From: Sphingomonas arenae
Lineage (GTDB): Bacteria; Pseudomonadota; Alphaproteobacteria; Sphingomonadales; Sphingomonadaceae
NCBI RefSeq assembly: GCF_016924655.1
Contig: NZ_JAFFJU010000002.1
Location: 620,001 to 684,000 of the forward strand
Direction of reading: 5' to 3'
DNA: 64,000 nt
The notes beneath the pieces were generated by a model. The model searched no databases. It was not told where the DNA came from and saw only the letters and a program-made list of their open reading frames with translations. The translations under genes were made by a program, and so were the position numbers. Shown in pieces: positions 55,145-63,047 of this stretch; the stretch's first letter is position 1; the number at the start of each line of letters is the position of its first letter.

Positions 55145-55830
55145 AGAAGGCCGAAGTCTTCGAGTTCTACCGGCGCCTGGCCGAAGTCAATCCCGAGCCG
55201 CAGGGAGAGTTGGAGTGGACCAACCCGTACACCCTCCTCGTGGCGGTGGCACTCTCGGCCCAGGCGACGGACGTGAGCGTCAACCTCGCGACCCGCAAGC
55301 TGTTCAAGCTTGCCGAAACGCCCGACAAGATGATTGCGCTGGGTGAGGAGCGGCTGAAGGAGCAGATCAAGACCATCGGCCTGTTCAACACCAAGGCCAA
55401 GCACGTCATTGCCCTCTCGCGAAAGCTCCTGGACGAGTTTGGTGGAAACGTGCCCACGACACGCGACGAATTGCAGCAGCTGCCAGGCGTTGGTCGCAAG
55501 ACAGCCAATGTCGTGCTTAATACCGCGTTCGGGCAGCCGACGATTGCTGTCGACACTCACCTGTTCCGCGTCTCGAACAGAACCGGGCTAGCGAGCGGCA
55601 AGACGCCCTTGGATGTCGAATTGAAGCTCGATCGGATCACGCCAGGGCTGTTCAAGCGACACGCGCACCACTGGCTGATCTTGCACGGCCGCTACGTCTG
55701 CAAAGCCAGACGACCCGATTGCTGGCGTTGTCCGGTCGTGGACCTGTGCCGCTACAAGCAGAAGAACCTGGTACCGCCCAAAGGATCAGTGCCAGTGGCG
55801 CTCGAACCGGTGACCGAGACCGGTCAGTAG
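55141..55830 (+). CDS. nth: Endonuclease III
   Basis: 229 residues. The helix-hairpin-helix LPGVGRKTANVVLN carries catalytic K120, D138 sits in VDTHLFRV, and the 4Fe-4S cluster is C187-x6-C194-x2-C197-x5-C203. It excises oxidised pyrimidines and nicks abasic sites. The ATG overlaps the dapB stop. Its 3' end overlaps the convergent alr by 45 bases. Confidence 0.95.
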   Translation: MKKAEVFEFYRRLAEVNPEPQGELEWTNPYTLLVAVALSAQATDVSVNLATRKLFKLAETPDKMIALGEERLKEQIKTIGLFNTKAKHVIALSRKLLDEFGGNVPTTRDELQQLPGVGRKTANVVLNTAFGQPTIAVDTHLFRVSNRTGLASGKTPLDVELKLDRITPGLFKRHAHHWLILHGRYVCKARRPDCWRCPVVDLCRYKQKNLVPPKGSVPVALEPVTETGQ

Positions 55831-56814
55831 CTCGTATTGGCTCTTGCCCGACTGCTCGGCCGCTCGCTCCAGCTCGAAGTCGAGGGAAATCCAGTCACCT
55901 TCCTTCAACCCCGGACGGGCGCCACAATCGAGCGCGACCAGGTCCATCGACACGCGGCCGAGCACGGGGAGAGCCGCGTCGTCGAACCTTGCGCTTCCGA
56001 CCGACGAGAAGCCGCGCCAGTAGCCATCGGCGTAACCGATGTTCGCGATAGCTACTTGGGTCTCTTGTGCTGCAACGAAGGTGGCGCCGTATCCGCAGCT
56101 TTCCCCGGCAGGGATGGTACGTCGTTGAACAACCTGCGCCTCCAGTTGAACAACTGCCTCGATATGACCGCGTGCTTCCAGCCGGGGTATGCCGCCATAA
56201 AGCGAAAGACCGGGACGCACGAGATCGAACGCATAATCCGGCCCCAGCAGGATACCGGCGCTGTTTGCCAGGCTGTAGCGCTCAGCAGGGATGGCTGCAG
56301 CGGCGGCCCGGAATTGCCGAAGTTGTTTCCCGTTCAGCAGGTGATCCTCGTCGGCGCATGCGAGATGGCTATGAAGGGTGTGGATCCTAAGCCCGGCCAG
56401 AACACCGCCTTCCTCCGGCCGCAAGCCAAGACGGTTCATGCCAGTATCGATCATCACGTCACAGGGACGTTCCGGCGCTATCTGCTTCCAGCGAGCCACT
56501 TGGTCAGGCGTGTTCAAAACAGGCCTGCAACCGGGAACATCCCCGGAGCGCAGGTCATCCGGTCCGATACCATGCAGAACGGCCAGCGAGGCCTCAACCG
56601 GCAAGAGGCCAAGCTGCTCAGCCTCCCACCAAGTCGAGACGAAGAAGTCCCGACACCCCGCGGCCACGAGAACGGACACGACCTCTCGCGCTCCAAGCCC
56701 GTACCCGTCAGCTTTTACTGCGGCAGCGCACCTGACGCCCGCTCGAGCAGCCAGCCATTTCCAGTTCGTGGCAAGTGCGTCCTTGTTGCAAATCATTCTG
56801 AGCGGTTGATGCAT
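55786..56814 (-). CDS. alr: Alanine racemase
   Basis: 342 residues. The PLP lysine is K34 in AAAVKADGYGLGA, with the barrel RPGLSLYGG and the catalytic tyrosine in ESCGYGATF; ANIGYADGYWRG follows. It makes D-alanine for peptidoglycan. It overlaps nth over 45 bases at the tail. The GTA cluster lies just upstream on the same strand; the last GTA-region gene (DUF2793) ends 85 bases before alr. Confidence 0.93.
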   Translation of the reverse strand: MHQPLRMICNKDALATNWKWLAARAGVRCAAAVKADGYGLGAREVVSVLVAAGCRDFFVSTWWEAEQLGLLPVEASLAVLHGIGPDDLRSGDVPGCRPVLNTPDQVARWKQIAPERPCDVMIDTGMNRLGLRPEEGGVLAGLRIHTLHSHLACADEDHLLNGKQLRQFRAAAAAIPAERYSLANSAGILLGPDYAFDLVRPGLSLYGGIPRLEARGHIEAVVQLEAQVVQRRTIPAGESCGYGATFVAAQETQVAIANIGYADGYWRGFSSVGSARFDDAALPVLGRVSMDLVALDCGARPGLKEGDWISLDFELERAAEQSGKSQYELLTGLGHRFERHWH

Positions 56815-56899: not shown

Positions 56900-57397
56900 T
56901 TACGTGGCACTGATCAGTCCGTGCAGGCGCAAAGCATTGAGAATTTGCACGATCGAGCCCCTCGCCTGCTGATCAACGGTAGTGCCCGCAGTAGGGTCCG
57001 GGATCGCTGGGGCTCGCGAGCCGACAACCTTTTGTCCCCCGATAAGAACCGCGCTGGCCAAGACCTGGCCGGTGTCCCACTGCCCGCTGGCGTACCGCAT
57101 CTTCAGCCCGCTTGACGTGGAAACCTCCATCCCCTCGAATGGCTCGACAAAGCGCCACCCACCATCGCTCCAAGCAGCTACAGCCCCGGGGTGATCGGCC
57201 CACGCTCCCGTGGGCGACGGACCCACGATGTAAGTCGCCCCGAGAGCCGGATCGGATGGCGGATCGTTCGCCGGACCACCCTTCACCACAGGCTGCACGA
57301 TGGTATCTAGAATCTGGAGCGCTTCGTTGTGGAATAGCTCCTTCTGCGCCTGCCCCGGGAGGATGAAGGGAAGCGCTAATCGATTGGTCTCGTCCAT
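56900..57397 (-). CDS. DUF2793 domain protein of the GTA/phage tail cluster
   Basis: 165 residues. The N-terminal LALPFILPGQAQKELFHNEALQILD is the DUF2793 signature, and the domain continues with GATYIVGPSPTGAWADHPG. DUF2793 is found in phage and GTA tail regions of alphaproteobacteria; its role is unknown, and a position after the tail-tip genes suits a fibre or decoration. The ATG at 57397 has GGAG eight bases upstream. The last 35 residues are helix-forming and end HGLISAT. Confidence 0.85.
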   Translation of the reverse strand: MDETNRLALPFILPGQAQKELFHNEALQILDTIVQPVVKGGPANDPPSDPALGATYIVGPSPTGAWADHPGAVAAWSDGGWRFVEPFEGMEVSTSSGLKMRYASGQWDTGQVLASAVLIGGQKVVGSRAPAIPDPTAGTTVDQQARGSIVQILNALRLHGLISAT

Positions 57398-57411
57398 GTT
57401 CGTATCTCCGA

Positions 57412-59547
57412 TTAAAGCATAAAGGTCGCTGACACGGCTTCCGAGATGGCGCTGTCGCCGATCTGCTCGACGGAGCATGTCACCGATCCGGGTTCGAAGA
57501 GATCGAGGTCTGGTGGTCGCAGCGAGAGGATCGGCTCGCTGACCTCGAACAACCGTTCGCTTTGCGAACCCTGCAGTCGCACGCGATAACGTTCTGCCGA
57601 TTCACCGAGCGGAGTCTCTGCATGATCCAGCCAAGACCAGCCTCGGCGACTCCGACGAACCCATCGGATTTGAACCGCCCCGTCTGGCAGTTGCTCGACC
57701 CGCAGATGCACTGGACTTGGTGGTCGAAGCGCCAGTCCAGTCGCCACATGGGCCTGCCAGGCTCCGGTATCGTCTCCTAATCCGCGCGACCCAACACGGA
57801 CTTGGGTCGGGCTGCTGGCCGCCGGGACATGGATTGGCGCCAAGGCATTGGGGTCCAGCAGAACGAACCGCTCCCCAGCGACGTGTCGAGCAGAAGCATG
57901 CTCCGTGCCCTGCCTCCCCCGCAGCAAGCGACTGAGACGAAACCCGCCCTGCCCCAAGGGAAGGGCATGCCCGAACTGGATGAGCTCATCTCCGACCAGG
58001 GCCAGGTTGCGGCCAGAACCCAAGGAAGCATCATCACAGCTCTGGAGCCAGTCGGCATCCTCGACTTGAACGGTGAGTTCGTTCTTCAAGTCGAGAAGCG
58101 CGGACCCGGCTGGGGCGAGAGTGCCAAGCGCTACCCCGATCACCGCCTTCTTCGGCGCGCACGACTGTGTGCTGATTTCGCCGCCCTCGTCCACCTCAAG
58201 GGGGATCGGCCGCCATGGTGAGCTTCCTCCCGCGACAGCTGCATATACCGTGACCTGACCGTCTGCTGCACTGAAGTCATTCGGCAGTTCGAAGAGTTCA
58301 ACGAGGCTGGGCTGGGCGGGGAGGTCCGCCTGGATGATTGAACGACCTCCATCGGCCGGAGCGACATCCCCGTTTTGCCGTTCGGCTCGCACCAACTCGA
58401 CCGTGACCACGAAGCCTTCGAACACGGAGCGAACGACCCGCCACACCTCACTCGCACCCGAGACCTGCAGCCTGTCACCCAGAAGCAGGCTCGAGTAGGC
58501 CGGTGGAAGCCTCAAGATCATGCGCTGACGCTCACGCCAGTGCCGATCAAGCATCTGCTGGGTCAGCAGCTTGGCCGTGCCAGCCTCCATGACCGCGGGC
58601 AACTCGATGCGACGCTCGCGCCGGCCAACCCCTTCCGCCCTCAAGCGGCTCTGGCCGACCTGATAGTCTCTCGATGCATCATAGTAGGTGATTGCCAAGG
58701 CGCGGGGAGCATCCGCTTCGGCTCCGATGCTCATCTCGCTAGCGGGAGCCGGTGCAGTGTCAAAGGAGCAGCCCAGCTCCTCGGGCCGCACGACGATGGG
58801 ACCGCCTTCGCCGATGCGCTGAATCTTGCCGCCAGTGACCACCAGATCGAGCCCACAGGTATCGACCAATGGCGTCACCGCTGAAGCAAGGTCATCACCA
58901 TGCGACGCAAAGCCACAAACCGGCAAAGCGACATCAGCAACTGAGCTCCCCAGACCCGCTTCGTCGAGAAGGTCACCAACCGTGATCTCCTCGTCGGCGC
59001 CCTCGATCTCGAATGTCAGGGAGGGTATCCGATTGCCGTAGGTCGCAAGTTCGAGGCCCTCGAATACCGCAACGGCCAGGCCCCGGAACGCCGGCGCTCG
59101 GTCAACTCCCTCGATCGCCGCGATAAGCGGATCCACGGGTTGATCCTCCGTACCGGGATACAGGCGAAAGTCCGTCCGGACCTTGAAGTCTCCCTCGACA
59201 CCCCGGAGCAGGGATCCTTCGGCCCAAATGCGTCGAACGCCCTTGATTCGCCGTGATGACAGAGCCACCGCAAAGTTCGCGGAGTAAGAGTAGCCGCCTG
59301 CATCTGCGGCTCGCTCCTGGATGTCCGTAGACCAGACGATCGTCCCCGCGGCTCTCATGGTGCCGTAGATCTTCGGGATGGCAGCACCGTAGCTCGAAGC
59401 CTGAACCGAGAGGTCTCCGAGCCGCGGCCCTCGTCTTCCGGAACCGAAGAAGCCTTGGTCAAGGGATTGACCGAGCATCGCTCCCAAGGCTCCGCCAAGG
59501 GGTCCACCGACAGCACTGCCGACAGCACCAAGCACAAGGGTGGCCAT
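57412..59547 (-). CDS. GTA gp15-like tail tip / host specificity protein
   Basis: 711 residues. A Gly-rich N-terminus (GAVGSAVGGPLGGALGAMLGQ) and ASSYGAAIPKIYGTMRAAGTIVW are typical of the GTA megatron protein. After LATYGNRIPSLTFEIEGAD (about 165-183) the sequence moves directly into the putative phage-tail domain. In Rhodobacter gp15 (about 1300 residues) a TIM-barrel-like domain lies between these parts; it is missing here. The C-terminal third is Ser/Pro-rich with FN3-like strands. It should contact the host envelope at the tail tip. Preceded by gp14. Confidence 0.88.
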   Translation of the reverse strand: MATLVLGAVGSAVGGPLGGALGAMLGQSLDQGFFGSGRRGPRLGDLSVQASSYGAAIPKIYGTMRAAGTIVWSTDIQERAADAGGYSYSANFAVALSSRRIKGVRRIWAEGSLLRGVEGDFKVRTDFRLYPGTEDQPVDPLIAAIEGVDRAPAFRGLAVAVFEGLELATYGNRIPSLTFEIEGADEEITVGDLLDEAGLGSSVADVALPVCGFASHGDDLASAVTPLVDTCGLDLVVTGGKIQRIGEGGPIVVRPEELGCSFDTAPAPASEMSIGAEADAPRALAITYYDASRDYQVGQSRLRAEGVGRRERRIELPAVMEAGTAKLLTQQMLDRHWRERQRMILRLPPAYSSLLLGDRLQVSGASEVWRVVRSVFEGFVVTVELVRAERQNGDVAPADGGRSIIQADLPAQPSLVELFELPNDFSAADGQVTVYAAVAGGSSPWRPIPLEVDEGGEISTQSCAPKKAVIGVALGTLAPAGSALLDLKNELTVQVEDADWLQSCDDASLGSGRNLALVGDELIQFGHALPLGQGGFRLSRLLRGRQGTEHASARHVAGERFVLLDPNALAPIHVPAASSPTQVRVGSRGLGDDTGAWQAHVATGLALRPPSPVHLRVEQLPDGAVQIRWVRRSRRGWSWLDHAETPLGESAERYRVRLQGSQSERLFEVSEPILSLRPPDLDLFEPGSVTCSVEQIGDSAISEAVSATFML

Positions 59548-59942: not shown

Positions 59943-60743
59943 TCAGCTTCCCGGGTAACGCGCTAGCAAGTCGTTGCCGGGAAGATGCGGCTCGCCCCGG
60001 AAGTTCGCCGCATTGCCGAACCGCTCTGCGCAGGTGGAAAAGCGTCGATCGCAGCCTTCTACGAGTTCGACCTGCGCCCCTGGGCGAATGTCCCCTGCCG
60101 CCACCTCACGCAACCGGACTACACTTCCATCGACGGAGATGATTGCACTCGAGAGACCGCAGTTCGTTCCGCTGAGGTAGCGCAAGCGTCCCCACCGGTA
60201 GGCGTCAGGGATCGGCTGATCCAACATGAGGCCTTCAGGATCGAGCCGCACAACCGCTGCACGCATGGATTGACCACGAAGATCGACCCGGCACGCCCGA
60301 TCTCCCAGTGACGCCCTGCATTCCGGAGAGGTCACGGGGCATGCGGGAATGGAGAGCTTCGCAAGTGGCCCGGCGAGCTCCGCCCTGAACTCGCCATCCG
60401 CGAGCGAGACCTCTCCCAGTTCACCTTGGAAGAGATCGGTAAACTCGGTCTCGTCCGACCACGATACCGCAGTCAGTCGGGTCCGCGCACCGCGCCACCG
60501 ACCCACGCGTAGGTCTTCCGTGCCAAGGCCGTCGTCTCCAACCGATCCATGCACTTCAGCCGGCTCATTCACGAGACCCGCGGACCGAGTAACGGCCGCC
60601 GGCGAAACCCCTTGGGAGGGTTGATGGAGGTCGCCGTTCACCACCAATGGGCGATCATGACTCGTGAGCGCAACGCCCGCACCATCGCGCCGCTCGAGCG
60701 TCCAGCAGAATGCCAGGGCGGACAATGTCTTTTCCGTGTCCAT
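59943..60743 (-). CDS. GTA gp13-like DUF2163 protein
   Basis: 266 residues. The cysteine-rich C-terminal GCDRRFSTCAERFGNAANFRGEPHLPGNDLL and the middle CPVTSPECRASLGDRAC are the signature of the DUF2163/phage BR0599 family; Cys pairs probably bind iron-sulfur or form a metal site (a 4Fe-4S cluster is reported for the Rhodobacter GTA hub; its presence here is inference). It forms part of the baseplate hub. Three bases separate it from the DUF2460 gene. Confidence 0.9.
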   Translation of the reverse strand: MDTEKTLSALAFCWTLERRDGAGVALTSHDRPLVVNGDLHQPSQGVSPAAVTRSAGLVNEPAEVHGSVGDDGLGTEDLRVGRWRGARTRLTAVSWSDETEFTDLFQGELGEVSLADGEFRAELAGPLAKLSIPACPVTSPECRASLGDRACRVDLRGQSMRAAVVRLDPEGLMLDQPIPDAYRWGRLRYLSGTNCGLSSAIISVDGSVVRLREVAAGDIRPGAQVELVEGCDRRFSTCAERFGNAANFRGEPHLPGNDLLARYPGS

Positions 60744-60746
60744 GGC

Positions 60747-63047
60747 TCAGCCCTCCCGCACTTCCACGAGGGGCACGCTCGCAGCTTCCCCTGCGCGAAA
60801 ACTTGCTCGATTGATCTCCAGGCGGTCTTCCGCGAAGCGCACCGGCACGTCGAACAGAAACCCTGCCCGGACCTCCGCGCCCGCAGGCGGCGGCGAGTCG
60901 AACTGGATGATCCCTGCTTGATCCAGACTCCAGTCGGTGACCAACTCCTGGCGATCCACGGAGACGCGAACGCTTCCGGGCGATGGACGAGTGATCCTCC
61001 GGCTCTCTCCTCCGCCGTAGCTTTTCACCAGAGGGAACCTGACCTTCGCGCCGTCTCCTAGACCCAACAGCTGGTCCTCGGGGCCAGCCTCGTCCGTCAT
61101 CCCGCTGGAACTGAAATCGTAAGGGTCTCGAAAGCGGAAGCCGATCGCGCTCCCCCGCCTTGCCCTGAAGAATGCCAGCAAGGTCTGCATCTCCGCATCC
61201 CCCCGCACACCGGGGCCCGCGTCGAACCGCAACTTGGCTTGGCTCCAGTTCACGTTTCGATACTCATGGCCGCTGGCGCTGGTCACGACCGCGGTCGAAA
61301 ATTGGGGCGCAACGCTGGCCTCCGCCCCGATCTCGATCGGGAACAGCACATCGTCGAATGCTTGCACGTCATCGTCCTTGCCAAAGATGGTGAGGCCGTC
61401 GCGAACGACTTGAGGAAAGGCCCAGAGAAATACTTCCGCGACCCCGCGCCTCCGCGCATCCTCGGCCGCGATCAGCACCTCGCTCCATTGCTCCCGATCC
61501 TCCGGTCGGGCGACGAAGCCGCTGAGATAATGCTGCTCACCGGGCGAATAGCCGAGCCGAGCGGCGGCGCGTTCGACCTCGGACCGCCGCTTCGTCCGGC
61601 GCCCTGCAGTTACCCACTCGTAGTCTTCCAGCTGCAGCACATCGAAAGCGGGCCTGCCCCAGCCCAGTGGCAGGTTAGCTCGTCGAAGCTCGGGAGCATC
61701 GCGGGAGAGAGATCCTGGCAGATAGGTCAGCAGCAGCGTCGAAGCCTCGGCATCCACCTGCTTCACGCCGGCGGCAATCGTCGCGGTGGACTGCGCCAGC
61801 AGCGCGCCCGCTCGATCGAGGAACGCACACTCTGTCTCGCTCTTCGGCCCACGGACGTCAGGGATATGGACGGCGTTCGCGCCCCATGCGGCCCGTGCAG
61901 CAGGGTCGTAGCAGCAGATTTCGTGATCGGGGGTGACCCACCACCATGGCTCCCCCACCTGAACGCGGACCGGCATCCCCGCCCGCTGAGCAACACGCGC
62001 CAGCGACTGAGCTACCGTCTTGAGGTAACCGATGGCCTCCACGCTCGCAGGCGAGACCAGTGTCGACGGTGGCTGGTAGCCAGTGGCGGCCGCGCGACCC
62101 GCCCAGTCCCGCTGCTTCCAGTCGTCGGGGCAAAACATGTCCAGGATTTCGTACGAAAGTGACCAGATCACTCCGTACCCACGTCGCTGCGCTTCCCTTG
62201 CGAAGGCCTCGTGCCAAGCCAGAGCGGGTCCGTTCATCGCGCGCGCAACCGAGACGAGCCCATCACCGCCCAGCGCGAAATAGTGGCTCATGCCCACGTA
62301 ATGGGTGATCAGCTTCCGGAACCCCAGCCGCTCGATGCTGTCGACGACCCGCTCGGGCGGGAGGTGGTACATGTCGTCGTACGCCGTGCAGATCCGAAGT
62401 TCGTGCTCGGGCACCATGGCATCATTGATCGCCAGAACGCTTCCCGATCCCTCGCAGCGGATGTTCCGCAGGGCGAGCCGCGCCTCGATCGGCTGCTGGA
62501 AGCGGACCTCGCTTCCGCCCTCATACCCGGGCGGCACAAGGCTGATGAACATGCGATCGATGTCGCCAGGGAACACTCGGTCGGCATCGTTGGGGAGAGA
62601 GAACCCGCCGTCCAGCTGGTCGAAGTCCAGCCGGATCGTCGCGGCGGTCCCGCCTCCCTGGGCATAGTTCCACAGACGCACATACCAGCTGCGCGCCTGG
62701 CCTTCGGCGTCGCGGCCCTCAATCGTCAGCGTCGGGCCGTTCACCGCGTCGAGCGGCGCCACGCCCGTCGACTCCCACTCGAAACTGAGAGTGCAGTGCG
62801 AGTAGTCGCGCTTCAGTTCCCTTCGGTGCGCGGGATGCGCATGCCGATCCTCACTTTCGAAGATGAGCCCGACGAGGTCCCCGCGGCGCAGGAAGCTGGC
62901 ATGCGCGACGATGGAGTGCGCATCCTCGCCCGCCACGACACTGGCCATGGCTCCGCGCGGGAAGTCGACGACCCAATGTCGTGGATCGAAGCGCTTCACC
63001 CAGGTGCGGTCCAGCGGCGCATCCGCGCGGGTGAACCAGTGCTTCAT
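60747..63047 (-). CDS. GTA gp12-like DUF2460 protein fused to a TIM-barrel-like N-terminal region
   Basis: 766 residues. The last 205 residues (from about 560) are a DUF2460 domain: FPIEIGAEASVAPQFSTAVV, NWSQAKLRFDAGPGVRG, and FRDPYDFSSSGM. The first 550 are unlike Rhodobacter gp12 and contain a region that looks like a glycosidase-type TIM barrel: GVIWSLSYEILDMFCPDDW, RVQVGEPWWWVTPDHE, and QLEDYEWV. A jelly-roll-like start (VVDFPRGAMASVVAG) precedes it. I infer that the barrel absent from gp15 resides here, giving a different hub layout. The fused form is known from sphingomonad phage-like clusters, where it may be a tail-sheath or adhesin protein. It overlaps the tape-measure stop by four bases. 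Confidence 0.83.
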   Translation of the reverse strand: MKHWFTRADAPLDRTWVKRFDPRHWVVDFPRGAMASVVAGEDAHSIVAHASFLRRGDLVGLIFESEDRHAHPAHRRELKRDYSHCTLSFEWESTGVAPLDAVNGPTLTIEGRDAEGQARSWYVRLWNYAQGGGTAATIRLDFDQLDGGFSLPNDADRVFPGDIDRMFISLVPPGYEGGSEVRFQQPIEARLALRNIRCEGSGSVLAINDAMVPEHELRICTAYDDMYHLPPERVVDSIERLGFRKLITHYVGMSHYFALGGDGLVSVARAMNGPALAWHEAFAREAQRRGYGVIWSLSYEILDMFCPDDWKQRDWAGRAAATGYQPPSTLVSPASVEAIGYLKTVAQSLARVAQRAGMPVRVQVGEPWWWVTPDHEICCYDPAARAAWGANAVHIPDVRGPKSETECAFLDRAGALLAQSTATIAAGVKQVDAEASTLLLTYLPGSLSRDAPELRRANLPLGWGRPAFDVLQLEDYEWVTAGRRTKRRSEVERAAARLGYSPGEQHYLSGFVARPEDREQWSEVLIAAEDARRRGVAEVFLWAFPQVVRDGLTIFGKDDDVQAFDDVLFPIEIGAEASVAPQFSTAVVTSASGHEYRNVNWSQAKLRFDAGPGVRGDAEMQTLLAFFRARRGSAIGFRFRDPYDFSSSGMTDEAGPEDQLLGLGDGAKVRFPLVKSYGGGESRRITRPSPGSVRVSVDRQELVTDWSLDQAGIIQFDSPPPAGAEVRAGFLFDVPVRFAEDRLEINRASFRAGEAASVPLVEVREG

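What the first reader, a model, noticed from the sequence alone, without database searches (positions are those of the whole stretch)
60747..63047. GTA hub with the TIM-barrel-like region moved from gp15 to the DUF2460 protein
In Rhodobacter GTA the DUF2460 protein (gp12) is short, and a TIM-barrel-like domain is embedded in the long gp15. Here the DUF2460 protein is 766 residues with about 550 extra N-terminal residues that look like a glycosidase-type barrel, while gp15 (57412-59547) runs straight from its N-terminal domain to the phage-tail domain at 711 residues. This suggests either relocation of a host-contact or glycan-cleaving module within the same cluster, or independent acquisition. 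The extra region carries Trp- and Glu-rich loops (VGEPWWWVTP) suited to sugar binding.
Basis: partly seen in the sequence, partly recalled or inferred. Interest (0 to 1): 0.72.

Follow-up and report, generated by a model that had tools for sequence, protein, structure and literature searches.

The report
GTA tail-ring protein with borrowed barrel
In sphingomonad bacteria, the tail-ring protein of the gene transfer agent (a virus-like particle that carries DNA between cells) has a large sugar-enzyme-like barrel fused to its front, related to one in the tail of phage N4 rather than to the barrel that Rhodobacter particles carry on another tail protein.

Summary
gp12 (60747-63047, minus strand, 766 aa) is a DUF2460 distal tail protein preceded by about 560 residues; gp15 (57412-59547, 711 aa) has no barrel. 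Pfam already models the extra part: NCTSP_N and TIM-barrel_NCTSP, named for the N4 non-contractile tail sheath. AlphaFold (pLDDT 90.8) shows a beta-sandwich then a beta/alpha barrel; the closest solved chain over the barrel is N4 gp64.

"Relocation from gp15" is not supported: the Rhodobacter gp15 barrel (GTA_TIM) and this one do not match profile to profile (probability 0.4%). Independent capture of another phage barrel fits better.

The fusion belongs to the order, not to this genome. In the order sample, 70 of 73 DUF2460 genomes carry the NCTSP barrel and 0 of 147 have GTA_TIM. Of 81 tail loci, 35 have the module on gp12, 3 on the hub gp13, 22 have GTA_TIM in gp15, 13 another gp15 insert, 8 none of these or unclear; none holds both NCTSP and GTA_TIM. 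The module is under purifying selection.

Most likely role: a six-copy glycan-binding or glycan-cleaving crown at the tail tip. Copy number and enzyme activity are inferred, not shown.

The parts
60747..63047 (-). gp12: distal tail protein (Rcc01695 family) with N-terminal NCTSP module, 766 aa; its ATG overlaps the gp11 stop (ATGA)
62427..62999 (-). NCTSP_N beta-sandwich domain, gp12 residues 17-207
   Evidence: PF23844 E 6.3e-79, same place; strands 2-208
61395..62411 (-). TIM-barrel_NCTSP domain, gp12 residues 213-551; invariant E300, E366 (in GEPWWW) and E474
   Evidence: PF23845 E 1.9e-140, same place; invariant in 24 and 84 sequences; model
60756..61355 (-). DUF2460 distal-tail domain, gp12 residues 565-764
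   Evidence: PF09343 E 1.1e-72, same place; RcGTA Rcc01695 E 5.5e-46
59943..60743 (-). gp13 baseplate hub, 266 aa, no module attached
   Evidence: PF09931, PF09356; TIGR02218
59551..59940 (-). gp14 NlpC/P60-like cell-wall peptidase, 129 aa
   Evidence: PF00877 and TIGR02219 matches below their cut-offs; position
57412..59547 (-). gp15 megatron homologue without a peripheral TIM-barrel domain, 711 aa
63044..63682 (-). gp11 short tape-measure protein, 212 aa
   Evidence: phrog_30701 E 2.1e-63 (function unknown) and weaker tape-measure PHROGs; position
56900..57478 (-). DUF2793 ORF directly after gp15; relatives found in 127 loci
   Evidence: PF10983 E 2.4e-25

Best explanation
The sphingomonad GTA distal tail protein (gp12) has captured a two-domain phage module: a beta-sandwich plus a glycosidase-like TIM barrel of the NCTSP family, known from the N4 tail sheath. 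The module is fused to the N-terminus of the ring protein, while gp15 lacks the unrelated GTA_TIM barrel that Rhodobacter-type gp15 carries. If the ring is a hexamer as in RcGTA, each particle would show six barrels around the tail tip, joined by a flexible linker (about residues 552-563). In RcGTA the N-terminus of this protein lies at the joint with hub and megatron, so the crown would stand near where the three gp15 barrels stand there. The barrel probably binds and perhaps cleaves a surface or capsule glycan so that the particle can reach the outer membrane. Shown here: domain content, fold prediction, distribution, no detectable homology to GTA_TIM at profile level, purifying selection. 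Inferred: stoichiometry, placement, glycan binding or cleavage.
For: Domains. Fold: (pLDDT 90.8, 84 sequences); Foldseek gives N4 gp64 chains at ranks 1-2 (E 2e-23, TM 0.64 on the target), R4C distal tail protein at rank 3, and from rank 7 of the 50 listed almost only carbohydrate enzymes (beta-amylase, PgaB, Cwp19, GH66, GH31, GH156, GH191). Sequence: N4 Gp64 E 3.6e-44, 3.7e-88 by profile, N4 sheath 1.2e-32. E300, E366 and E474 are invariant in 24 sequences, in 84, and by eye in 9 of 9 rows spanning GTA, hub-fused, Lokivirus-type, rV5, Acinetobacter and N4-like forms. Distribution: DUF2460 in 73 of 147 order genomes, barrel in 70, NCTSP_N in 71, GTA_TIM in 0. In 289 class genomes GTA_TIM is in 32, NCTSP in 5, none in both. 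All 80 kept genome-contig relatives (of 562, capped, nearest first) are Sphingomonadales. gp15 junction gap: 21-30 aa in 34 type A loci, 497-754 aa in 22 type C loci. Median dN/dS: barrel 0.145, NCTSP_N 0.128, DUF2460 0.129.
Against: I saw no measured activity for any NCTSP barrel; the only functional name seen ('baseplate protein with EPS depolymerase activity', rV5_ev156) is an annotation. The conserved carboxylates are at the ends of strands 3, 4 and 6, not the strand 4/7 pair recalled for clan GH-A, so catalysis is uncertain; no coordinates were available to measure distances. One listed fold neighbour is itself a noncatalytic beta-amylase relative. No sphingomonad GTA particle has been shown here, and the terminase does not lie beside the portal in this genome. 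In the barrel tree type A is not one side of a branch, though that is not rejected (p-AU 0.429).
Confidence: 0.62

Rival explanations
1. Relocation: the gp15 TIM-barrel module itself moved from gp15 to gp12 within the cluster.
For: The two states exclude each other: none of 81 loci has both, and the modules are of like size (about 535-560 aa on gp12; 497-754 aa insert in gp15).
Against: Profile comparison of module and gp15 insert: probability 0.4%, 0.5-0.7%. Conserved glutamates differ in setting. The NCTSP module has N4/rV5/Lokivirus proteins as relatives; the gp15 insert profile finds RcGTA and R4C megatron and, weakly (E 0.22), endo-mannanases. The rV5, Loki and Lebethron tail proteins tested gave no significant match to the gp15-insert profile.
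Confidence: 0.05
2. Purely structural or receptor-binding role: the barrel is a dead enzyme that braces the tail tip or binds a protein receptor, as the N4 sheath is thought to do with NfrA.
For: The N4 sheath gp64:gp65 is a six-fold, receptor-binding assembly (PMC12633501 passages). Catalytic geometry is not shown. The RcGTA gp15 barrel also has no known function (PMC13420450 passage).
Against: Three glutamates and an aromatic-rich loop stay invariant across particles of very different build, more than a brace should need; beyond phage proteins the listed fold neighbours are mostly carbohydrate enzymes.
Confidence: 0.28
3. One ancestral capture shared by gp12-fused (type A) and hub-fused (type B) elements, followed by a jump of the module between the neighbouring genes gp12 and gp13.
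For: Core tail genes weakly group A with B (SH 0.764); the tree holding A+B together had a log-likelihood 3.42 higher than the free quick search (p-AU 0.564). The module profiles are clearly homologous.
Against: In the barrel tree type B groups with Lokivirus-type and N4-like barrels (99/99), not with A. A+B in the barrel tree is not rejected either (p-AU 0.331), so the question stays open.
Confidence: 0.3
4. The cluster is a decaying prophage and the fusion has no present function.
For: 9 of 11 sampled genomes of the window's genus lack DUF2460, and several order members have interrupted barrels.
Against: Median dN/dS of about 0.13-0.15 over 43-44 usable pairs per domain among relatives, an intact reading frame here, short tape measure, host-type genes at the gp15 side (read by eye), GTA-type gene order.
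Confidence: 0.06

Closest known systems
Phage N4 non-contractile tail sheath, gp64 and gp65 (PDB 9lc0, 9yf4, 9yf5)
   Same: gp64 is homologous to the barrel (residues 256-552, E 3.6e-44) and gp65 to NCTSP_N and the start of the barrel (217-257); six-fold arrangement around the tail (PMC12633501 passages).
   Different: N4 is a podophage; the module is split over two proteins and is not joined to a DUF2460 ring protein.
RcGTA gp12/gp15 (Rcc01695, Rcc01698) and roseophage R4C
   Same: Same ring, hub, peptidase and megatron order and families; a glycosidase-like barrel near the tail tip.
   Different: There the barrel is a GTA_TIM insert in gp15, three copies, mannanase-like in R4C (PMC10276861 passage); gp12 is only about 210 aa.
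Hub-fused elements (type B: L034, L039, L045; phrog_6040)
   Same: Same two-domain module on a neighbouring tail gene; gp15 also lacks the insert.
   Different: Module precedes the hub gp13 instead of DUF2460; L034 and L039 have tape-measure ORFs of 815 and 722 aa, so they are phage-like.
Vequintavirinae tail protein (rV5_ev156) and Lokivirus ORF17
   Same: NCTSP_N plus barrel with all three glutamates.
   Different: In rV5_ev156 a separate 690-aa protein with a Calx-beta match; in Loki a 900-aa protein after the ring gene whose C-terminal domain matched neither hub nor DUF2460 profiles.

Membership tests
NCTSP module (Pfam PF23844 + PF23845) | Both domains above the curated cut-off, in order | tested here: met
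   264 and 468 bits against a cut-off of 27 each
NCTSP module (Pfam PF23844 + PF23845) | Beta-sandwich followed by a beta/alpha barrel similar to N4 gp64 | tested here: met
NCTSP module (Pfam PF23844 + PF23845) | Forms a non-contractile sheath around a podophage tail | not testable with these tools
   Needs a particle structure; the name comes from N4
Rcc01695-type distal tail protein (TIGR02217 / DUF2460) | DUF2460 domain over the curated cut-off | tested here: met
   244 bits, cut-off 30.4; TIGR02217 197 bits, cut-off 136.65
GTA megatron equivalog (NF048004) | Whole-protein score of at least 800 bits | tested here: not met
   gp15 scores 386 bits; peripheral domain missing
GTA_TIM barrel (PF13547) | PF13547 match | tested here: not met
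   No hit in gp12 or gp15, none in the genome
RcGTA-like gene transfer agent | Portal, protease, capsid, tail tube, gp10, gp12-gp15 in GTA order with a short tape measure | tested here: met
   an extra 800-aa gene lies between capsid and head-completion genes
RcGTA-like gene transfer agent | Terminase beside the portal | tested here: not met
   The two PF03237 hits lie at C2:263906 and 850256; ORFs upstream of the portal that were scanned had no terminase match
RcGTA-like gene transfer agent | Particles that package host DNA | not testable with these tools
   -
Retaining or inverting glycoside hydrolase | Two catalytic carboxylates at suitable distance and measured activity | tested here: inconclusive
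   E300, E366, E474 invariant at barrel strand ends; distances and activity not measured

The most novel reading that the evidence does not exclude
Alphaproteobacterial GTAs and related phages keep one functional 'peripheral slot' at the tail tip that must hold a glycan module. The slot has been filled by unrelated modules on different proteins: GTA_TIM or a third module in gp15 (three copies), NCTSP on the hub gp13, or NCTSP on the ring gp12 (six copies). Sphingomonadales replaced the mannanase-like trimer by a hexameric crown of active glycosidases shared with the N4 sheath, perhaps to match their unusual LPS-poor surface.
Probability: 0.3. Interest if true: 0.72.

Novelty: new variant of a known kind. 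Interest (0 to 1): 0.5.

Why it matters
The barrel of the best-studied GTA (RcGTA gp15) has no assigned function; a 2026 preprint says so outright (PMC13420450, passage). Sphingomonad GTAs offer a natural swap: the gp15 domain is absent and an unrelated phage barrel sits on the ring protein next to it. If both serve the same step, that step matters more than the barrel's ancestry, and it can be tested by one gene deletion. The case also links GTA tails to the N4 sheath and to E. coli myophages, and gives a marker (fused gp12) that separates sphingomonad GTAs from phage relatives: of 50,697 phage records, 322 match the module, but only 1, an unverified 5.4-kb scaffold, covers 80% or more of the fused gp12 in one place.

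Tried and rejected
Relocation of the same barrel: rejected on profile comparison and relatives. Loki ORF17 C-terminal domain as a hub relative: hmmsearch and hhalign found nothing significant (probability 0.6%; only three of the four Lokivirus-type tails entered, the Lebethron piece came out empty), so no claim is made that Lokivirus has a hub fusion. A one-step jump of the module between gp12 and gp13: left open, the core tree and the barrel tree disagree. The gp15 insert of type D as a diverged GTA_TIM: hhalign 1.2%, no Pfam match over the insert above cut-off in 5 of 13 scanned (one weak propeller-repeat match, Reg_prop E 0.22), no PDB hit for a profile of 9 of 13; propeller-like by eye only. 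Single-gene trees did not recover A and B cleanly: A was one side of a branch only for gp15N, B only for DUF2460, A+B for none. Literature: no held paper has two of 'non-contractile tail sheath', 'TIM barrel', 'DUF2460'. The search listings (titles and abstract starts), and passages of PMC7296036, PMC13420450, PMC6821227, PMC10883770, PMC8601537, PMC10276861 and PMC11409702, did not mention the fusion. PMC5381585 (the 'ancient prophage of Sphingomonadales' paper) is not held and may mention it; only the free-licence part of PMC was searched.

Rows dropped: alignment A1 used 23 of 37 module loci besides the window; A3 used 83 of 145 full-length gp12 relatives; A5 66 of 82 gp15 relatives; A6 19 of 22 GTA_TIM inserts (L054, L064, L065 left out); A7 9 of 13 type D inserts. 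The concatenated tree dropped L046, L077 and L081; one search also dropped the 5 E rows and 1 '?' row. dN/dS medians use pairs with dS under 2 (43, 44 and 43 of 45 pairs). Fold-search statements rest on the 50 listed rows of 1617 and 1869 matches.

Full report
What is there. The two ORFs are as described. gp12 (60747-63047, minus strand, 766 aa) contains NCTSP_N (17-207, E 6.3e-79), TIM-barrel_NCTSP (213-551, E 1.9e-140) and DUF2460 (565-764, E 1.1e-72); the query began at residue 2, so its printed positions are one lower, and searches give the same places. gp15 (57412-59547, 711 aa) matches only Phage-tail_3 and Rcc01698_C in Pfam and aligns to RcGTA gp15 residues 2-206 and 855-1271. It therefore skips the peripheral domain, residues 230-744 (PMC7296036, passages). 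The order of genes (gp11 short tape measure, gp12, gp13 hub, gp14 peptidase, gp15) is that of an RcGTA-like cluster. At and beyond the window's end the gp10, tail tube, head-completion, capsid, protease and portal genes follow. An ORF at 55786-56814 that I read by eye as alanine racemase flanks the gp15 side. The terminase is not next to the portal.

Structure. The gp12 model (84 sequences, pLDDT 90.8) shows a beta-sandwich to residue 208, eight barrel strands between 218 and 541, a low-confidence linker near 559-562, and the ring domain. Foldseek places N4 gp64 first (E 2e-23, TM 0.64 on the target), the R4C distal tail protein third, N4 sheath chains next, and then, in the 50 rows listed, almost only carbohydrate-active enzymes: beta-galactosidases, beta-amylases, PgaB, Cwp19, GH66, GH31, GH156, GH191. 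Among viral models the best are Acinetobacter phage IMEAB3, jumbo phage Goslar, Aeromonas phage MJG and Pseudomonas phage uligo. The gp15 model (67 sequences, pLDDT 87.6) has no beta/alpha barrel; its listed matches are tail-tip and spike proteins (JBD30, R4C megatron, RcGTA gp15, Chi, T5, lambda, VgrG) and fibronectin-type chains.

Conserved residues. E300, E366 and E474 are invariant in alignments of 24 and 84 sequences. By eye they are also invariant in all 9 rows of an alignment spanning GTA, hub-fused, Lokivirus-type, rV5, Acinetobacter and N4-like proteins. They sit at the ends of barrel strands 3, 4 and 6. In the GTA_TIM insert the conserved glutamates lie in GSE and TELG contexts (95% and 100% of 22 rows), which I recall as typical of strands 4 and 7 in clan GH-A. 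The two barrels thus seem to differ in layout as well as in sequence.

Distribution. In 147 genomes of the order, 73 have DUF2460, 70 the NCTSP barrel (all 70 are among the 73), 71 NCTSP_N, 0 GTA_TIM, and 102 Phage-tail_3. The three DUF2460 genomes without barrel are G020, G033 and G057; in a few of the 70 the fused gene is interrupted. In 289 genomes of the class, 50 have DUF2460. Of the 46 outside the order, 29 also have GTA_TIM, 1 (G277) the NCTSP barrel and 16 neither; no genome has both.

Architectures. Of 81 loci read in detail, all picked for a DUF2460 match: type A, module on gp12, 35; type B, module on the hub gp13, 3 (confirmed with Pfam); type C, GTA_TIM insert in gp15, 22; type D, another insert of 351-440 aa in gp15, 13; type E, none of these, 5; incomplete or unclear, 3. 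The gap between the gp15 N-terminal and central parts is 21-30 aa in A, 30-31 in B, 497-754 in C, 351-440 in D and 94-132 in E (34, 3, 22, 13 and 4 loci measured). So in all 37 measured A and B loci a gp15 without insert goes with a module on a neighbouring gene. The exceptions are the E loci, one of them in the order (G033). Type D loci often have an enlarged hub too, so 'one module per cluster' is shown only for NCTSP against GTA_TIM.

Evolution. On a tree of core tail domains with the modules left out, type A is one side of a branch (SH 0.998; SH-aLRT 99), and the four labels need 4 changes against a minimum of 3 and a shuffled mean of 32.3 (72 rows). A and B are weakly joined (0.764); held together they even gained 3.42 log units over the quick search (p-AU 0.564). 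In the barrel tree B joins Lokivirus-type and N4-like barrels (99/99), away from A, but A+B is not rejected there either (p-AU 0.331), and A itself is not one side of a branch though not rejected as such (p-AU 0.429). I read this as one old capture on gp12 in the sphingomonad GTA lineage and probably a separate one on the hub; the second part is uncertain.

Against relocation. The modules do not align by profile (0.4%; 0.5-0.7%). The gp15 insert profile finds RcGTA and R4C megatron and, only weakly, endo-mannanases (E 0.22); R4C's authors also call that domain mannanase-like (PMC10276861 passage). The gp12 module profile finds N4 gp64 (3.7e-88) and gp65 (1.2e-32). Phage searches show the module in E. 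coli myophages, Lokivirus-type siphophages and N4-like phages.

Function. Purifying selection on the barrel (median dN/dS 0.145) is like that on the ring domain (0.129). Placement is inferred: in RcGTA the ring is a hexamer whose N-terminus contacts hub and megatron (PMC7296036 passages), so an N-terminal fusion would set six modules near where three gp15 barrels stand. In N4 the related sheath is six-fold and binds the receptor (PMC12633501 passages). A host-surface glycan as target is the likeliest reading; cleavage rather than binding is a guess supported by the invariant glutamates. That sphingomonads have glycosphingolipids in place of LPS is recalled, not looked up.

Verdict. A real and well-conserved arrangement that I did not find described in the papers searched (and the passages listed), built from domain families already in Pfam. 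It is a new variant of a known kind. Its interest lies in the swap of one barrel type for another at the same tail tip.

Noticed in passing
L002:11412-13814 (-), i.e. G000:C2:686411-688813, just outside the window: An 800-aa protein with a weak right-handed beta-helix match (E 0.02) sits between the capsid gene and the head-completion genes of the GTA cluster; relatives were found in 18 loci. It could be a spike protein; I recall no such gene at this place in RcGTA.
   Followed up: partly
Genus of the window, order sample: 9 of 11 sampled genomes of the window's genus have no DUF2460; G119 and G144, among these, keep a Phage-tail_3 ORF of 572 and 549 aa. The GTA tail seems to have been lost in much of this genus.
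   Followed up: no
L037, L043, L056, L070, L072-L075, L078-L080, L082, L085 (gp15): A third, unnamed insert of 351-440 aa occupies the gp15 slot; no Pfam (5 scanned), PDB (profile of 9) or GTA_TIM match. By eye it looks repeat-like, perhaps a beta-propeller.
   Followed up: partly
L037, L043, L056, L072, L073, L074, L080 (gp13): In these type D loci the hub match spans about 334-827 residues instead of about 260, so the hub seems to carry an insert of its own.
   Followed up: no
G010, G031, G039, G064, G110, G118, G122: The fused gp12 appears interrupted (stop, frame change or gap) in these genomes: decay or sequencing error, not resolved.
   Followed up: no
G000:C2:263906-264661 and 850256-850855: Two large-terminase genes lie far from the GTA cluster, which itself has none recognised beside the portal.
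   Followed up: no
L260:4423-12337: Near the hub-fused prophage-like locus of G013, genes that look by eye like a cysteine desulfurase and a PAPS-reductase-type protein lie in a row, as in DNA-phosphorothioation islands; not searched.
   Followed up: no
IMG/VR loci L169-L248: Contigs with fused gp12, many only 4-18 kb long, are filed as viral in IMG/VR; if they are GTA clusters they could inflate counts of sphingomonad proviruses.
   Followed up: no
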